Shown here one piece after another: positions 18,802 to 58,525 of a DNA stretch of 64,000 bases. The stretch spans positions 1,550,001 through 1,614,000 of the forward strand of contig NZ_CP045484.1 in the NCBI RefSeq assembly GCF_009729055.1, written 5' to 3'. The DNA is from Sulfurisphaera ohwakuensis. Its GTDB lineage: Archaea > Thermoproteota > Thermoprotei_A > Sulfolobales > Sulfolobaceae. Positions within the stretch are counted from its first letter, which is position 1, and every line of letters begins with the position of its first letter. The position numbers and the translations under genes were made by a program. The notes beneath the pieces are model-generated. The model saw only the letters and a program-made list of their open reading frames with translations. It did not search any database and was not told where the DNA came from.

Positions 18802-18868
18802 TAAAAATGTACAAAGACTGTAACATTTCTGCGTAACTTTTAAATACTTCTAGTTACTTCTAATTACT

Positions 18869-19477
18869 GTGGAGAGGTATTTAACACCTAGTGAAGTTGC
18901 CGAGATCTTTGGGATAAGTAGGAGTGGTATTATTAAGTGGATTAGGGAAGGGAAAATAAAGGCTATTGAAATTAACGGTAGGTGGAGAATACCTTACAGT
19001 GAAGTAGAAAGATTAATAAGTGGAAAAGAAAAAGTTAAACAAGTAGCAATTTACGCTAGAGTCTCATCAAACACACAAAAGGACGACTTAGAGAGACAAC
19101 TAAACACGTTGAAGGAATGGGTTAAGAAAACCTTCGGTGAAGTGAGTGTAATTGAAGTTAAGGACATTGACTCTGGATTGAAAGAAGATAGAAGAGGATT
19201 AAAGAAACTCATAGAATTAGCCAAGAGGAGACAGATCGATGTGGTAGTAGTAGCATACAAGGACAGACTAACACGTTTCGGCTTCGAATACCTCGTTGAG
19301 CTATTCAAAGCTTACGGAGTAAACGTCATCGTGGCTTTCCAAGAAGAACCAAAGGATTACATACAAGAGCTAGTAGAGGATTTCGTAGAAATCGTAAAAT
19401 CCTTTGCTTCAAAAATTTACGGCCATAAGTACGAGAAGGTGATAAAATGTGTTGAAGACACTGAAAAGGACAATTAA
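18869..19477 (+). CDS. tnpA: IS607-type serine recombinase TnpA
   Basis: 202 residues from GTG 18869. The N-terminal MerR-like helix-turn-helix (YLTPSEVAEIFGISRSGIIKWIREG, residues 4-29, with RWRIPYSEVERLI after it) precedes a small serine-recombinase domain: YARVSS (about 62-67, nucleophile serine), LERQL, DIDSGLKEDRRGLKKLI and KDRLTRFGFEYL. It catalyses movement of the element without target-site sequence demand. Overlaps tnpB by 29 bp. Nearly identical to the protein at 57756-58364. Confidence 0.92.
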   Translation: MERYLTPSEVAEIFGISRSGIIKWIREGKIKAIEINGRWRIPYSEVERLISGKEKVKQVAIYARVSSNTQKDDLERQLNTLKEWVKKTFGEVSVIEVKDIDSGLKEDRRGLKKLIELAKRRQIDVVVVAYKDRLTRFGFEYLVELFKAYGVNVIVAFQEEPKDYIQELVEDFVEIVKSFASKIYGHKYEKVIKCVEDTEKDN

Positions 19478-20761
19478 ACTTGATAGCGACTCTCTGAACA
19501 AGTGGAAATACAACGTTCTTAAAGAGATTGAGGAATACCAAAGAAACATAGTTAATGAAATGATTAACATAATACTCTCTGAGGGCTTACCAACTACTAG
19601 GAAGAAGTTGCACGAGAGGTTTTACAGTTATTATAAGGAAAAGTATCCCTTCTTACCTTCAAGGGTTATTGAAGGATCCTACATCGTAGCTGGTAGGATA
19701 GTTAAGAGTTTTAGGGAGAGGAGAAAGAAAGGACTAACGAGAAACCAGAGTATAAGAGGGTCGTGATCACAATCCCTAACACGGTTAATTGGAAGTTTAA
19801 CAGAGTGTCTGTTAGCGTTTTAACCCACAAGGGTTGGGTTGAGATCCCCCTCAAGTTCACTAAACAATTCATCCACTATTTATATGAGGGTTGGAGGGTT
19901 TCTCAAGAACTCAAGTTAAGGTTAGTGGGTAGGAGAGTCCTAGTCTGGTTAACATTTGAGAAGGACGTTGAGGTTGAAACGAAAGAAGGTAATTACGTTT
20001 CTATTGACGTTAACGAGAATAATATCACCTTAGCAGTTTTTGAGGGTTTCAAGCTCAAGGAGATGAGGCGTTATGAGACTGGATTAGGGAGGATTGTTAT
20101 TAACTACTCCTTGAGGAGGGAAGAGGTTACTAAGGGGTACTCAACTAAGGACGAGCTAATTAAGAAAAAGTTGAAGAGGTTGAGGGAGAGGAAGCTTGAT
20201 GTTCTTAGAAAGACCGTTAAGAGGGTTGTTGAGTTGGCTAGGGATTTAAAGGTAAAGGTTGTGGTTGGTAAGTTTTCATCAAAGGCTAAGGAGAGGATGG
20301 AGGGTAACAAGAATGGTAAGCTTAGGCATAGGATTCATCAGTGGAGTGTTGTTAAATTTATTGAAATGCTTAAGGCTCAGCCAATAGATGTCACGGAGGT
20401 TTCAGAATCATATACTTCTTCCATAAACCCATTTGATGGTGAGAGGTTGGGGAAGAGTAAGCAAGTAGTGGAGAAGGTTATCAAGGTTTTTAACCCCTAC
20501 CTGATGACGGGCTCTGCTCACGAGGGTAGGGGGATCAAGGTAATCAAAGTTACCGCTAGGTACTTAGATGGTGGGGAAATATTGTTAGAAAGGAATTCAA
20601 TTGCACCTCTTAACCTTGTAAAGAAGGTGGATGGGAGGGTATTGGTGTTTCCCTCGACTAGTCCCAATGAGTTAAGGGTGACTGTGTATGATCCCTTAAG
20701 AGGGGTGCCCTTGGCGGAATTAGAAGTAATTAAAAGTAAGGATAAGTTACGCCATGGGTAA
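19449..20761 (+). pseudogene. tnpB: frameshifted IS607 TnpB
   Basis: Same gene as the intact 441-codon tnpB at 56459-57784, split into 19449-19766 and 19763-20761. Compared with it, the bases GGAGAAA between two GAGAAA repeats (near 19742-19746) are missing, a 7-bp deletion that shifts the frame after RRKKGLTR. A second, in-frame 6-bp deletion removes one Arg-Glu pair in RLRERERKL. The position equal to D387 of the intact copy is Asn here (LLERNSIAPLN), so a RuvC-III aspartate may be lost too. Probably non-functional unless frameshifting rescues it. Confidence 0.88.
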
Positions 20762-20904
20762 ACACTTTTTAGGGGCTTTATCCTTTAAAATTCTGGGAAT
20801 ATAATTTTATTACTACTCGATTAAATTGTTGATAAGCTTAATATATTGTTTAGCTAGATTATAAAGTTTAGGGGTTCAAAGGGGGCGAAAAACCTCGCCT
20901 TTTA

Positions 20905-47186: not shown

Positions 47187-47554
47187 TTTAAAATTACAGC
47201 CCTAATAGATTAGGTAATTGTTCCGGGTATGAATGATTAATAGCAATGTTAAACCAGCCCAGCTTCATCACCCTTCAGATCCTAGTGGCAATTCATCGTT
47301 CAACTATGATTAGCTAAGAGAAGAATAAAAATTAATATGAAAAAGCTAATTTACTTAATAGTGTTTACCCGTGGCGTAACTTATCCTTACTTTTAACTAC
47401 TTCTAATTTCGCTATAGGCACCTTTGTTACCGTAAATTCAGTAATGATAAAATTTTATTATAGTAATATTTTCTTTATTATCCTAACTGAGAAATGATTT
47501 AAACTATCTAATTCGAGAGAATTTTAACTTATCTTAAAAATTAAACTAGGAAAT
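47187..47554. other. non-coding interval with IS607 fragment
   Basis: 368 bases between DUF488 and hemerythrin. Contains a solitary tnpB 3'-end fragment at 47359-47421 (separate entry); the remainder shows nothing recognisable. Confidence 0.5.
47359..47421 (-). mobile_element. solo right-end fragment of IS607 tnpB
   Basis: The AGTGTTTACCCGTGGCGTAAC start and the following about 60 bases match the 3' end of tnpB at 56454-56515 nearly base for base before diverging at GGCACC. Remnant of a third IS607 element in the same orientation as the copy at 56 kb. Confidence 0.8.
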
Positions 47555-54968: not shown

Positions 54969-55751
54969 GTGAGTTTAGAGGAAGAAATTAAAAAAGTATT
55001 GCTCAATAATCCATCTATATTAATAGATGTACTAACTGCTAGACCAGAAATAATCTACCAAGTATTGGCTAAGTTGACTCCTTGGCAGAATTTGGCTACT
55101 AAACAGGATATTGAAAAATTGAGTAGAGAAATTGAGGACATCAAGCAAAATATGGCTACTAAGCAAGAATTGGAGGAGATTAAAAAGACGATAGTTACAA
55201 AACAAGAGTTAGAAGAAATAAAGAAGATAGTTGCTACGAAGGAAGACCTTAAAAATATGGCCACAAAACAAGAGTTAGAAGAAATAAAGCAAAATATGGC
55301 TACTAAGCAAGAATTGGAGGAGATTAAAAAGACGATGGCCACAAAGGATGATATAAAGAGACTAGAAACTATCATTACTGGTCTTGGTGCTAGATGGGGG
55401 ATTATGAACGAAGACTCTTTTAGGCAAGGCATTAGGGAGATTCTAAGTAATACTGGATGGAAGGTTTCGAGGGAAATTCTCTATGATAAGGATGGGTATG
55501 TTTATGAAGAACCTTCTGACATTGAGTATGATATTATAGTAAAAGATGGTAATGTTATATTGATTGAGATAACTTCCTCATTAAAAAGAGGAGATTTGCC
55601 AATAATAAAAAGAAAGAAGGAATTATATGAGAGACTTAAAAATGTTAAGATAACTTTAGTTTACGTTATAACACCCTTTGTTCACGATAGATATCCTGAG
55701 AGAGTTAAGGCGATGGCTAAAGATATGGGAATAGAAGTAATTTATCCTTAA
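54969..55751 (+). CDS. coiled-coil protein with PD-(D/E)XK-like domain
   Basis: 260 residues from GTG 54969. An N-terminal helical head (1-40), then about six imperfect 11-15-residue repeats of ATKQELEEIKK (about 43-132) forming a long coiled coil, then a domain from 140: EDSFRQGIREIL, D188 in IEYDIIV, E200-x-T202 in VILIEITSS and a helix IIKRKKELYERL. This pattern fits the DUF3782-type PD-(D/E)XK-like fold common in Sulfolobales; T replaces the usual K, so catalysis is uncertain. The DNA repeats make copy-number change likely. Confidence 0.72.
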   Translation: MSLEEEIKKVLLNNPSILIDVLTARPEIIYQVLAKLTPWQNLATKQDIEKLSREIEDIKQNMATKQELEEIKKTIVTKQELEEIKKIVATKEDLKNMATKQELEEIKQNMATKQELEEIKKTMATKDDIKRLETIITGLGARWGIMNEDSFRQGIREILSNTGWKVSREILYDKDGYVYEEPSDIEYDIIVKDGNVILIEITSSLKRGDLPIIKRKKELYERLKNVKITLVYVITPFVHDRYPERVKAMAKDMGIEVIYP

Positions 55752-56452
55752 GCTTGTTATGAGGTAGAGATATAACTAATAATAAAGAAATTACGATAAT
55801 TTAGTTTTAATATTTATAGAACTAATATTGCGTTTTCATGGTTTTAATATCTATTAAACCATGTAAATTACTCTAAAACAAAATTTATAAATGGAAATCA
55901 TGTAGAAGTTCTCCCTTTTCAGTTATATTCTCTTCAAGCTTAAATTCGAAAGACTGTATTTATTGAAGAGGACAGTTTTAACTTAGTATGTTATGCCCCA
56001 ATGATAGTTTTGAACACGACACCTCCTATAATCACTACCAGCGTAAGTAGGAAAAGTATCCTATAATTTTGTGTTGACTTTCTTGCACTTTTGCAATATT
56101 TTATCTCCATCGTATTAACATTAATTTTCAGAGAAGTACTCCAGAATGTATAAAGAAAAGTATTTTATCTGTGTAAATAGAAAATTTCCAATATAAAGTA
56201 GGGACGAGTACAAAACTCTTTAAGTCCAATTTTGTGAATGATATGCCGTACGTTTTTTACTTCGTTATTAATTATAACGCTTAGTATTGGTTTTCATCAA
56301 TTTTAACCTTTTCCTATTCTGATGATTTTTAGTCATTTTAGTATATCTTCTAAAGTTCTCAGAAAACATACTTATGCCAAGTAACGTACACCTGTTCATT
56401 GTATTAATAAAATAGTATGTTGTGTCAAATTATAGGGCAAGGCACTTTCCTT
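55752..56452. other. largely non-coding interval
   Basis: 700 bases between the coiled-coil gene and IS607. Only a 39-codon minus-strand frame (separate entry) stands out. No repeats or RNA genes recognised. Confidence 0.4.
55991..56110 (-). CDS. possible 39-residue single-helix membrane protein
   Basis: ATG 56110: MEIKYCKSARKSTQNYRIL followed by a hydrophobic helix (LFLLTLVVIIGGVVF) and KTIIGA. The positive-inside polar head plus one helix is gene-like and faintly recalls the tail of SecE/Sec61-gamma (ARKxT before the helix), but the secE operon neighbours are absent. Could be chance in AT-rich DNA. Confidence 0.3.
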   Translation of the reverse strand: MEIKYCKSARKSTQNYRILFLLTLVVIIGGVVFKTIIGA

Positions 56453-56458
56453 AAGTGT

Positions 56459-57784
56459 TTACCCGTGGCGTAACTTATCCTTACTTTTAATTACTTCTAA
56501 TTCCACCAAGGGCACCCCTCTTAAGGGATCATACACAGTCACCCTTAAGTCCTTGGGGTTGGTCGAGGGAAACACCACTACCCTCCCATCCACCTTTTTC
56601 ATCAGATTAAGAGGTGCAATTGAATCCCTTTCTAACAATATTTCCCCACCATCTAAATACCTAGCAGTAACTTTGATTACTTTAATACCCCTACCCTCGT
56701 GAGCAGAGCCCGTCATCAGGTAGGGATTAAAAACCTTGATAACCTTCTCCACTACTTGCTTACTCTTCCCCAACCTCTCACCATCAAATGGGTTTATGGA
56801 AGAAGTATATGATTCTGAAACCTCCTCAACATCAATAGGCTGAGCCTTAAGCATTTCAATGAATTTAACAACACTCCACTGATGAATCCTATGCCTAAGC
56901 TTACCATTCTTGTTACCCCCCATCCTCTCCTTAGCCTTTGATGAAAACTTACCAACCACAACCTTTACCTTTAAATCCCTAGCCAACTCAACAACCCTCT
57001 TAACGGTCTTTCTAAGAACATCAAGCTTCCTCTCCCTCTCCCTCAACCTCTTCAACTTTTTCTTAATTAGCTCGTCCTTAGTTGAGTACCCCTTAGTAAC
57101 CTCTTCCCTCCTCAAGGAGTAGTTAATAACAATCCTCCCTAATCCAGTCTCATAACGCCTCATCTCCTTGAGCTTGAAACCCTCAAAAACTGCTAAGGTG
57201 ATATTATTCTCGTTAACGTCAATAGAAACATAATTACCTTCTTTCGTTTCAACCTCAACGTCCTTCTCAAATGTTAACCAGACTAGGACTCTCCTACCCA
57301 CTAACCTTAACTTGAGTTCTTGAGAAACCCTCCAACCCTCATATAAATAGTGGATGAATTGTTTAGTGAACTTGAGGGGGATCTCAACCCAACCCTTGTG
57401 GGTTAAAACGCTAACAGACACCTTGTTAAACTTCCAGTTTACCGTGTTAGGGATTGTGATCACGACCTTCTTGTACTCTGGTTTCTCCTTTCTCGTTAGT
57501 CCTTTCTTTCTCCTCTCCCTAAAACTCTTAACTATCCTACCGGCAATAATATAAGATCCTTCAATAACCCTTGAAGGTAGGAAGGGATACTTTTCCTTAT
57601 AATAACTGTAAAACCTCTCGTGTAACTTCTTCCTTGTAGTGGGCAAGCCCTCAGAGAGTATTATGCCAATCATTTCATTAACTATGTTTCTTTGGTATTC
57701 CTCAATCTCTCTAAGAACGTGGTATTTCCACTTGTTCAGAGAGTCGCTTTCTAACCTAACTGTCCTTTTCAACGTCTTCAACAC
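56459..57784 (-). CDS. tnpB: IS607-associated TnpB-like protein without zinc ribbon
   Basis: 441 residues. TnpB-like: strand-rich N-terminus, RuvC-I D189 (YVSIDVNENN), a coiled helical insertion (about 235-270), KVKVVVGKFSSKAKERM (273-288) where a RuvC-II glutamate would be expected but G278 stands, ESYTSSINP (324-331) at the zinc-ribbon entry, and D387 (LLERDSIAPLN) at RuvC-III. It contains no cysteine, so the zinc ribbon is lost. Whether it is a nuclease is doubtful; it may be an RNA-guided binder or use relocated residues. Overlaps tnpA by 29 bp. Confidence 0.82.
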   Translation of the reverse strand: MLKTLKRTVRLESDSLNKWKYHVLREIEEYQRNIVNEMIGIILSEGLPTTRKKLHERFYSYYKEKYPFLPSRVIEGSYIIAGRIVKSFRERRKKGLTRKEKPEYKKVVITIPNTVNWKFNKVSVSVLTHKGWVEIPLKFTKQFIHYLYEGWRVSQELKLRLVGRRVLVWLTFEKDVEVETKEGNYVSIDVNENNITLAVFEGFKLKEMRRYETGLGRIVINYSLRREEVTKGYSTKDELIKKKLKRLRERERKLDVLRKTVKRVVELARDLKVKVVVGKFSSKAKERMGGNKNGKLRHRIHQWSVVKFIEMLKAQPIDVEEVSESYTSSINPFDGERLGKSKQVVEKVIKVFNPYLMTGSAHEGRGIKVIKVTARYLDGGEILLERDSIAPLNLMKKVDGRVVVFPSTNPKDLRVTVYDPLRGVPLVELEVIKSKDKLRHG

Positions 57785-58364
57785 ATTTTATCACCTTCTC
57801 GTACTTATGGCCGTAAATTTTTGAAGCAAAGGATTTTACGATTTCTACGAAATCCTCAGCTAACTCTTGTATGTAGTCCTTTGGCTCATCTTGGAAAGCC
57901 ACGATGACGTTTACTCCGTAAGCGTTGAATAGCTCAACGAGGTATTCGAAGCCGAAACGTGTTAGTCTGTCCTTGTATGCTACTACTATTGCATCGATCT
58001 GTCTCCTCTTGGCTAATTCTATGAGTTTCTTTAATCCTCTTCTATCTTCTTTCAATCCAGAGTCAATGTCCTTAACTTCAGTTACACTCACTTCACCGAA
58101 GGTTTTCTTAACCCATTCCTTTAACGTGTTTAGTTGTCTCTCTAAGTCGTCCTTTTGTGTGTTTGATGAGACTCTAGCGTAAATTGCTACTTGTTTAACT
58201 TTTTCTTTTCCACTTATTAATCTTTCTACTTCACTGTAAGGTATTCTCCACCTACCGTTAATTTCAATAGCCTTTATTTTCCCTTCCCTAATCCACTTAA
58301 TAATACCACTCCTACTCATCCCAAAGATCTCGGCAACTTCACTAGGTGTTAAATACCTCTCCAC
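57756..58364 (-). CDS. tnpA: IS607-type serine recombinase TnpA
   Basis: 202 residues, MerR-like HTH then serine recombinase (YARVSS, KDRLTRFGFEYL). Differs from 18869-19477 at a handful of positions (for example Ile16Met, Val/Ile to Ala-Ile near 127). Start GTG with a TTTTAAATA box 27 bases upstream inside the element. Intact together with its tnpB, so this copy could be mobile. Confidence 0.92.
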   Translation of the reverse strand: MERYLTPSEVAEIFGMSRSGIIKWIREGKIKAIEINGRWRIPYSEVERLISGKEKVKQVAIYARVSSNTQKDDLERQLNTLKEWVKKTFGEVSVTEVKDIDSGLKEDRRGLKKLIELAKRRQIDAIVVAYKDRLTRFGFEYLVELFNAYGVNVIVAFQDEPKDYIQELAEDFVEIVKSFASKIYGHKYEKVIKCVEDVEKDS

Positions 58365-58525
58365 AGTAATTAGAAGTAACTAGAAGTATTTAAAAGTTAC
58401 GCAGAAATGTTACAGTCTTATACGAACTTAGAGATACTATTGTACTTTAGATTATGAACTAATATAAATGCAGTTGCTAATCTTTGTACGCGTGTTAGCT
58501 ACATTTAATAATCCATTAAACTCTA

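What the first reader, a model, noticed from the sequence alone, without database searches (positions are those of the whole stretch)
56459..57784. Cysteine-free TnpB with no glutamate at the usual RuvC-II site
The intact IS607 TnpB has Asp at RuvC-I and perhaps RuvC-III, but Gly where Glu is usual and no zinc ribbon at all. Either the catalytic site is rearranged or it is a nuclease-dead RNA-guided protein kept by the element.
Basis: partly seen in the sequence, partly recalled or inferred. Interest (0 to 1): 0.55.

Follow-up and report, generated by a model that had tools for sequence, protein, structure and literature searches.

The report
Zinc-less TnpB with relocated glutamate
A jumping gene of a heat-loving archaeon carries an RNA-guided DNA cutter that has lost its zinc-binding part and has moved one acid of its cutting site to another spot, so it is probably live rather than dead, and the DNA where the zinc part used to be also appears to encode a piece of the guide RNA.

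Summary
In detail: the 441-aa IS607 TnpB (minus strand, 56459-57784) has no cysteine and has Gly278 where the RuvC-II glutamate usually lies. It does not look dead. A glutamate, E324, sits at the alternative site known from Fanzors (Ealt). E324, Gly278, D189 and D387 are invariant in 17 of 17 aligned proteins (38-95% identity). In the sampled alignments every protein has exactly one Glu across the two sites. A profile alignment puts G278/E324 on G416/E467 of the mimivirus Fanzor2 structure 9b0l. The gene is under purifying selection (dN/dS 0.087). The clade groups with canonical-Glu archaeal TnpBs, most with a zinc ribbon, so Ealt probably arose separately here. Ealt and rearranged RuvC-II clades are already in print. 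New to me: the segment replacing the ribbon encodes an RNA hairpin (low synonymous change, covariation), kept in ~300-bp derivatives lacking most of tnpB; a comparable hairpin lies inside the ribbon of many canonical relatives. A second, three-helix RNA scaffold overlaps the last codons. Best reading: an active RNA-guided nuclease with a rearranged DED site. Cleavage was not tested; the triad geometry was not measured.

The parts
56454..58418 (-). whole IS607 element (about 1965 bp), left end at 58418, right end at 56454/56455
   Evidence: common boundary of copies and relatives
57756..58364 (-). tnpA, IS607 serine transposase, 202 aa, overlaps tnpB start by 29 nt
   Evidence: NF033518 E 1.6e-60; Resolvase PF00239 E 2.1e-23
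56459..57784 (-). tnpB, 441 aa, Cys-free
   Evidence: TIGR01766 66.6 bits (cut-off 32); NF040570 57.1 bits (below its cut-off of 100)
57218..57220 (-). D189, RuvC-I Asp (followed by invariant N191)
   Evidence: invariant in A1 and A2
56951..56953 (-). Gly278 at the canonical RuvC-II Glu position
56813..56815 (-). E324, proposed catalytic Glu (Ealt)
   Evidence: invariant in 17 of 17; aligns with E467 of 9b0l_P
56624..56626 (-). D387, RuvC-III Asp
56688..56726 (-). RNA hairpin module encoded in the segment that replaces the zinc ribbon (codons 353-366)
   Evidence: low synonymous change, covariation, retained in derivatives without most of tnpB
56454..56576 (-). 3' reRNA scaffold with three helices (56555-56558/56515-56518; 56542-56548/56521-56527; 56504-56512/56462-56470)
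   Evidence: pair counts on a structure I drew; RNAalifold by itself returns parts of the second and third helix, not the first; synonymous dip at codons 398-441
56434..56453 (-). expected guide: first ~20 nt outside the right end (length inferred)
   Evidence: boundary; inference from TnpB reRNA architecture
58387..58394 (-). TTTAAATA in the left end, archaeal TATA-like, about 25 nt upstream of the tnpA GTG
   Evidence: role inferred
18814..20767 (+). second copy of the element in the window (same copy as L012/L015), tnpB broken by a 7-base deletion and D387N
47350..47422 (-). right-end-only fragment (73 bp, 88% identical)

Best explanation
This is a TnpB that is most likely still an RNA-guided DNA endonuclease. 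Its metal site is D189 (RuvC-I), E324 (the 'Ealt' position at the end of the strand before the former zinc ribbon) and D387 (RuvC-III), probably helped by N191. The canonical Glu has become Gly. The zinc ribbon is gone as a protein module, but the DNA there still encodes a hairpin of the element's reRNA. The last ~44 codons encode the rest of the reRNA scaffold, and the guide is read from flanking DNA. Shown: the residue swap, its invariance, the selection, the RNA covariation, the fold class. Inferred: that E324 binds metal, that the RNA is made and bound, that DNA is cut, and that cutting helps the element persist.
For: E324/G278/D189/D387 invariant in 17 of 17. Reciprocal swap: every aligned row has Glu at exactly one of the two sites (59-row set: 21 and 38; 56-row set: 29 G/E, 1 P/E, 26 E/other; pooled). 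Profile A2 aligns G278/E324 to G416/E467 of 9b0l_P, mimivirus Fanzor2, E 1.6e-7. SpuFz1 Mg ligands are E541, D383, N385, D606 (PMC10432273, passages): the same D-x-N / E / D order, with 65 against 63 residues from the Glu to the last Asp. AF2 model 2 has the TnpB/Cas12f fold: Z 18.6 to ISDra2 TnpB 8h1j, Z 15.9 to 9b0l. dN/dS 0.087. reRNA.
Against: No cleavage data. AF2 job 1 had a poor RuvC (mean pLDDT 55); job 2 used a 45-row alignment in which most rows are other TnpBs. Purifying selection would also be seen in a dead but useful protein. The Ealt rows were retrieved partly with an E-containing peptide pattern, so their Glu is partly by construction (their Gly is not). The profile of the Ealt clade alone (A1) found no PDB chain even at E 10. 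No TAM-like motif stands out in 22 left flanks except A/T at -2. Single-sequence folding of the 3' scaffold is unremarkable (z -0.61), and the lowest-energy fold of the 66-nt window piece is not the proposed hairpin. No relevant Rfam family matched.
Confidence: 0.8

Rival explanations
1. Nuclease-dead, RNA-guided DNA-binding protein (TldR-like) kept by the element as a roadblock or regulator.
For: Canonical Glu replaced by Gly and ribbon lost; low dN/dS is compatible.
Against: D189 and D387 invariant together with a compensating Glu in all 17. The element is a mobile IS607 with intact tnpA and related copies in several genomes. The close copies seen to lose D387 are also frameshifted.
Confidence: 0.12
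2. Altered chemistry: a two-Asp site (or a neighbouring Glu such as E320/E321) gives nicking or slow cutting without E324.
For: E321 is nearly invariant in A1; other RNase H-like enzymes vary their ligands (general knowledge).
Against: E324 alone is invariant and alone matches the Fanzor2 position; no Ecan row has Glu at that column.
Confidence: 0.05
3. Only the RNA matters: tnpB is kept mainly because its 3' third encodes the reRNA used in trans by other TnpBs, and the protein is drifting.
For: reRNA modules are more constrained at synonymous sites than the rest and occur without the gene in many derivatives.
Against: dN/dS 0.087 across codons 1-390 and an invariant active-site set argue that the protein is used.
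Confidence: 0.03

Closest known systems
Fanzor2 / pro-Fanzor and other Ealt TnpBs (Yoon et al. 2023, PMC10711439; passages plus sections 23 and 30 read)
   Same: Gly at the canonical site (9b0l) and Glu seven positions before the first ribbon Cys position; IS607 association; fold match to 9b0l
   Different: No zinc ribbon; RuvC-I is D-V-N or D-I-N, not DPG; archaeal; groups with Ecan archaeal TnpBs. Their search pattern demanded CxxC...CxxC, so a ribbon-less Ealt protein could not be found by it
Archaeal Ecan TnpBs with D[VLI]NEN at RuvC-I (L016, L017 in the same genome, and relatives)
   Same: about 30-35% identity over ~330 aa, DVNEN-type RuvC-I, IS607 tnpA next to L016, RNA hairpin at the ribbon locus in most of those folded, synonymous dip at the 3' end
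   Different: Canonical Glu and a zinc ribbon (C/H ligands) present
Bacterial/phage Ealt TnpBs with ribbon (L106 Neptuniibacter, L136 Moraxella, viral L240-L274)
   Same: VVGNV ... VNE(A/S)YT motif with the same swap
   Different: Ribbon kept, D-L-G RuvC-I, different place in the tree for L106/L136
RuvC-II rearrangement clades RII-r3 and RII-r5 (named in PMC10278001, section 13 read; original survey not held)
   Same: A catalytic rearrangement of RuvC-II within TnpB
   Different: Could not be compared: sequences not available here

Membership tests
IS607-associated TnpB (RNA-guided nuclease) | sequence profile of TnpB | tested here: met
   TIGR01766 66.6 bits over cut-off 32 (NF040570 57.1, below its cut-off 100; no Pfam hit)
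IS607-associated TnpB (RNA-guided nuclease) | adjacent IS607 serine transposase within shared ends | tested here: met
IS607-associated TnpB (RNA-guided nuclease) | RuvC D-E-D set | tested here: met
   D189, E324 (alternative site), D387
IS607-associated TnpB (RNA-guided nuclease) | C4 zinc ribbon (part of the motif in PMC3627910; 'many' TnpBs per PMC10711439, so common rather than defining) | tested here: not met
   no Cys in the protein; three archaeal Ecan rows (L121, L126, L130) also lack it
IS607-associated TnpB (RNA-guided nuclease) | reRNA at the right end | tested here: met
   sequence evidence only; expression not testable
IS607-associated TnpB (RNA-guided nuclease) | guide- and TAM-dependent DNA cleavage | not testable with these tools
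   needs biochemistry
Fanzor / pro-Fanzor | Ealt | tested here: met
Fanzor / pro-Fanzor | DPG at RuvC-I | tested here: not met
   D-V-N or D-I-N in all 17
Fanzor / pro-Fanzor | common clade with Fanzors | tested here: inconclusive
   no Fanzor in the tree; one clade of 21 Ealt rows rejected by AU test
TldR (nuclease-dead TnpB) | loss of RuvC catalytic residues (recalled) | tested here: not met
   two Asp and one Glu invariant
RII-r3 / RII-r5 TnpB clades | clade membership in the published survey | not testable with these tools
   survey paper not held

The most novel reading that the evidence does not exclude
In this archaeal IS607 lineage the zinc-ribbon stretch of tnpB is also an RNA gene: it encodes a conserved hairpin of the reRNA. 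In the Cys-free clade the protein ribbon was given up while the RNA hairpin was kept, and independently of Fanzors the catalytic glutamate moved to the alternative site. So a protein module and a guide-RNA module overlapped in one stretch of DNA and the RNA won.
Probability: 0.5. Interest if true: 0.7.

Novelty: new variant of a known kind. Interest (0 to 1): 0.5.

Why it matters
Surveys that score TnpB by D-E-D at fixed columns (as the passage of PMC10278001 describes), or that require a CxxC...CxxC ribbon (PMC10711439), would call this clade dead or miss it. It offers a small cysteine-free TnpB candidate from a thermophile, and a second lineage in which to ask what moving the glutamate does (for example to collateral cutting, which PMC10432273 reports absent in SpuFz1; passages). 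The RNA hairpin at the ribbon locus contrasts with ISDra2, where PMC10097598 (passages) found that functional parts of tnpB and its RNA hardly overlap and that the RNA part over the ribbon was not needed for cleavage.

Tried and rejected
Dead-protein reading: considered first, dropped when the reciprocal Glu swap appeared. Programmed frameshift: several copies break near codons 88-100, but L011/L012 share a 7-base deletion and L021 has a different 1-base one, so I treat them as ordinary pseudogenes. TAM from left flanks: 22 flanks gave only A/T at -2. Rfam: one sub-threshold match elsewhere in the searched stretch, nothing on the element's RNA. PDB by sequence: phmmer found nothing relevant and the Ealt-only profile A1 found 0 matches even at E 10; only the mixed profile A2 gave TnpB/Cas12f/Fanzor matches. 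Viral contigs: four scans with close or sister queries gave none, one gave a single Ecan relative; two scans with general TnpB queries gave 127 loci. AF2 job 1 was poor. Recombination of the C-terminal half: the tree of 104 columns still groups the clade with the Ecan D[VLI]NEN rows (28 rows, SH-aLRT 98, quick method), so no support for capture of an Ealt C-terminus. Sigma-70 and terminator scans at chance level.

Full report
What is there. The window lies in a 2.8-Mb genome (G000). On the minus strand an IS607 element of about 1965 bp runs from 58418 to 56454: tnpA (57756-58364, NF033518 203.9 bits) overlaps tnpB (56459-57784), and the right end lies a few bases after the tnpB stop. TnpB is 441 aa with 0 Cys. 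It has no Pfam match but matches TIGR01766 above its cut-off and NF040570 below its cut-off.

The catalytic set. The canonical RuvC-II position is Gly278. In an alignment of 17 proteins (the window's and 16 relatives, identity 95 to 38%), D189, Gly278, E324 and D387 are invariant. In more distant relatives of the same lineage (for example L016 in the same genome), Glu stands at the 278 column, Pro at the 324 column, and a zinc ribbon is present. E324 is followed by six residues and then N331, which stands where the first ribbon Cys would be; D334 stands for the second. That is the spacing Yoon et al. (PMC10711439; passages, sections 23 and 30) give for the alternative Glu of Fanzors, ExxxxxxCxxC. 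Their search expression required both CxxC pairs, so a ribbon-less Ealt protein was outside it by design.

The swap is reciprocal. The 59-row set holds 27 rows chosen from the 50, 16 proteins from named plasmid, phage and viral records, and 16 archaeal ORFs (14 loci of the 20 fetched, six giving no suitable ORF, plus L003 and L006). In it 21 rows have Gly at 278 and Glu at 324, and 38 have Glu at 278. In the 56-row set (51 viral loci picked by hand out of the 127 fetched, 3 of them dropped for stop codons, plus 8 earlier rows) the counts are 29 G/E, 1 P/E and 26 E/other. One search pooled these with alignment A1: 122 distinct strings, 61 with Glu only at 324 and 61 with Glu only at 278, none with both and none with neither. 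By my count about a dozen of the 122 are the same locus trimmed differently, which leaves about 110 loci (49 and 61). D189 is Asp in 122 of 122; the last Asp is Asp in 121 and His in 1 (L127). The sets are not random: the viral Ealt rows were found partly by a pattern that contains the Glu, so only their Gly is informative.

Structure evidence. The profile of A2 (27 rows) found 31 PDB sequences at E up to 1, among them the mimivirus Fanzor2 'TnpB-like protein L79', 9b0l_P (E 1.6e-7), in which IGKL and VNEYLT align with the profile columns of our VVVGKF and VSESYTS; by chain index these are G416 and E467, with D501. The profile of the Ealt clade alone found nothing. For SpuFz1 the Mg ligands are E541, D383, N385 and D606 (PMC10432273, passages); ours would be E324, D189, N191 and D387, and N191 is invariant in A2. 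That numerical correspondence was not checked by an alignment to SpuFz1. AF2 with 5 rows gave a poor RuvC (mean pLDDT 55); with 45 rows mean pLDDT 74. The second model aligns with AsCas12f 7wju (Z 18.7, 341 residues, rmsd 5.7), ISDra2 TnpB 8h1j (Z 18.6, 331, 7.0) and mimivirus Fanzor2 9b0l (Z 15.9, 334, 6.2). The rmsd values are large; I take this as lobe movement but did not test it. The strand 319-323, directly before E324, and the helix from 386, carrying D387, are in the expected order. Low-confidence stretches are 217-228, 285-291, 346-370 and 402-441; the last two coincide with the two RNA-coding parts below.

Evolution. On a careful tree with the two trait columns and the ribbon region removed, the 14 ribbon-less Ealt rows form one group (100/99), inside a 28-row group (100/100) with 14 Ecan rows; other Ealt rows lie elsewhere. 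Holding all 21 Ealt rows together is rejected (p-AU 1.8e-37), as is joining the 14 with L131/L133/L135 (p-AU 3e-5). Long branches (L134, L138 and others) are present and no Fanzor is in the tree, so I state separate origin as probable. dN/dS over codons 1-390 of ten close full-length genes is 0.087 (dN 0.097, dS 1.118; 44 pairs).

The guide RNA. Synonymous differences fall from 0.339 (codons 1-390) to 0.087 (398-441) among ten close genes. On a structure I drew from the window fold and the alignment, 93.5% of 979 cells pair, 25 cells changed on both sides against 8.3 +- 2.3 in shuffles (0 of 500), further pair types 28 against 21.8 (1 of 500), pairs with a change on both sides 8 against 4.8 +- 1.5 (20 of 500); slid controls pair at 36-62%. 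RNAalifold by itself returned 12 pairs of the second and third helix, 7 with double changes, and not the first helix.

An RNA hairpin where the ribbon was. Three derivatives inspected (L078, L094, L082) have a left end, then a piece equal to tnpB codons ~353-366, then the right-end scaffold, with the codons between missing; left end to right end is 295-297 bp in L094, L082 and L099. The piece has a nearly invariant core, TGATGACGGGC..TGCTCACGAGG, with a variable stem around it (found by a pattern for the core, not the stem; 26 hits, of which L109 is a chance match and 4 too close to a sequence end). In the 21 remaining sequences 91.7% of 252 cells pair, 9 double changes against 3.5 +- 1.7 (3 of 500), covariation score 0 of 500; but the number of pairs with a change on both sides (4) was reached by 96 of 500 shuffles and further pair types (13) by 65 of 500. 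Synonymous change dips here too (0.11 and 0.13 in codons 351-370 against about 0.35). Similar dips are seen in five mid relatives (0.23 at 341-350, background about 0.5) and seven Ecan relatives (0.15 at 331-340, which lies between the ribbon ligand pairs). Other, unexplained dips exist: close genes 281-300 (0.17-0.20), Ecan genes 211-220 (0.13). In ten Ecan genes, chosen by a pattern that includes the loop and inner stem and so leans towards pairing (L019 failed it), the ribbon-encoded hairpin pairs in 97.7% of 130 cells, 8 double changes against 2.6 +- 1.2 (0 of 500); pairs with a double change 2, reached by 335 of 500. Folding 20 Ecan genes singly showed the inner hairpin in 16 by my reading, not in L061, L067, L062 and L064. 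Against this reading: single-sequence folding of the window gave z -2.0 for the ribbon piece but a different lowest-energy fold, z -0.6 for the 3' scaffold, and Rfam had no relevant match. No RNA data were available.

How it probably works. Transcription from the left end (TTTAAATA at 58394-58387; inferred) gives a tnpA-tnpB mRNA whose 3' part is the reRNA: hairpin, a middle that the short derivatives lack, a three-helix scaffold, then a guide from flanking DNA. TnpB binds it and cuts DNA at sites that match the flank, chiefly the emptied donor site, favouring retention of the element. The last two steps are inferred from TnpB biology.

Known or new. Ealt is known (PMC10711439), RuvC-II rearranged TnpB clades are known (PMC10278001, section 13: RII-r3, RII-r5), and overlap of tnpB with its RNA is known; in ISDra2 the RNA covers residues 335-408, but its 5' part was not needed for cleavage (PMC10097598, passages). 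I found no paper on ribbon-less Ealt TnpBs or on a conserved RNA hairpin at the ribbon locus in the searches, none of which used those exact words together and which cover only the open library; the main TnpB survey was not held. I therefore file it as a new variant of a known kind.

Noticed in passing
54969-55751 (+): 260-aa protein next to the element with DUF3782 and a PD-(D/E)XK domain (PF07788) and a run of ATKQELEEIKK-like repeats.
   Followed up: no
L121, L126, L130: Archaeal Ecan TnpBs that also lack the zinc ribbon (short loop before IDRDYNAS/LDRDYNAS): ribbon loss also occurs without the Glu swap.
   Followed up: no
L131, L133, L135: Archaeal Ealt TnpBs with ribbon and a NADYNGA RuvC-III motif; L134 (same genus as the window) also has Ealt with ribbon and NADLNGA.
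   Followed up: partly
L127: TnpB with canonical Glu but His in place of the RuvC-III Asp (DRHFVA): candidate dead or rearranged RuvC-III.
   Followed up: no
L286: Viral TnpB with Ealt and Pro (not Gly) at the canonical site.
   Followed up: no
G015 (L030, L082, L099, L158): Genome with 19 right-end matches, many near-identical, but no full-length close-clade tnpB listed: reRNA-only elements perhaps living on another TnpB.
   Followed up: partly
L103:2435-3685: Ecan relative of this lineage carried on a 76107-bp viral contig (same length as Sulfolobus virus STSV2).
   Followed up: no
several genomes, e.g. G029:C1:2064372-2064410: 39-bp copies of only the last part of the right end, up to 100% identical: another, shorter derivative type or a shared end of a different element.
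   Followed up: no
close tnpB genes codons 281-300; Ecan genes codons 211-220: Further dips in synonymous change without an assigned RNA role.
   Followed up: no
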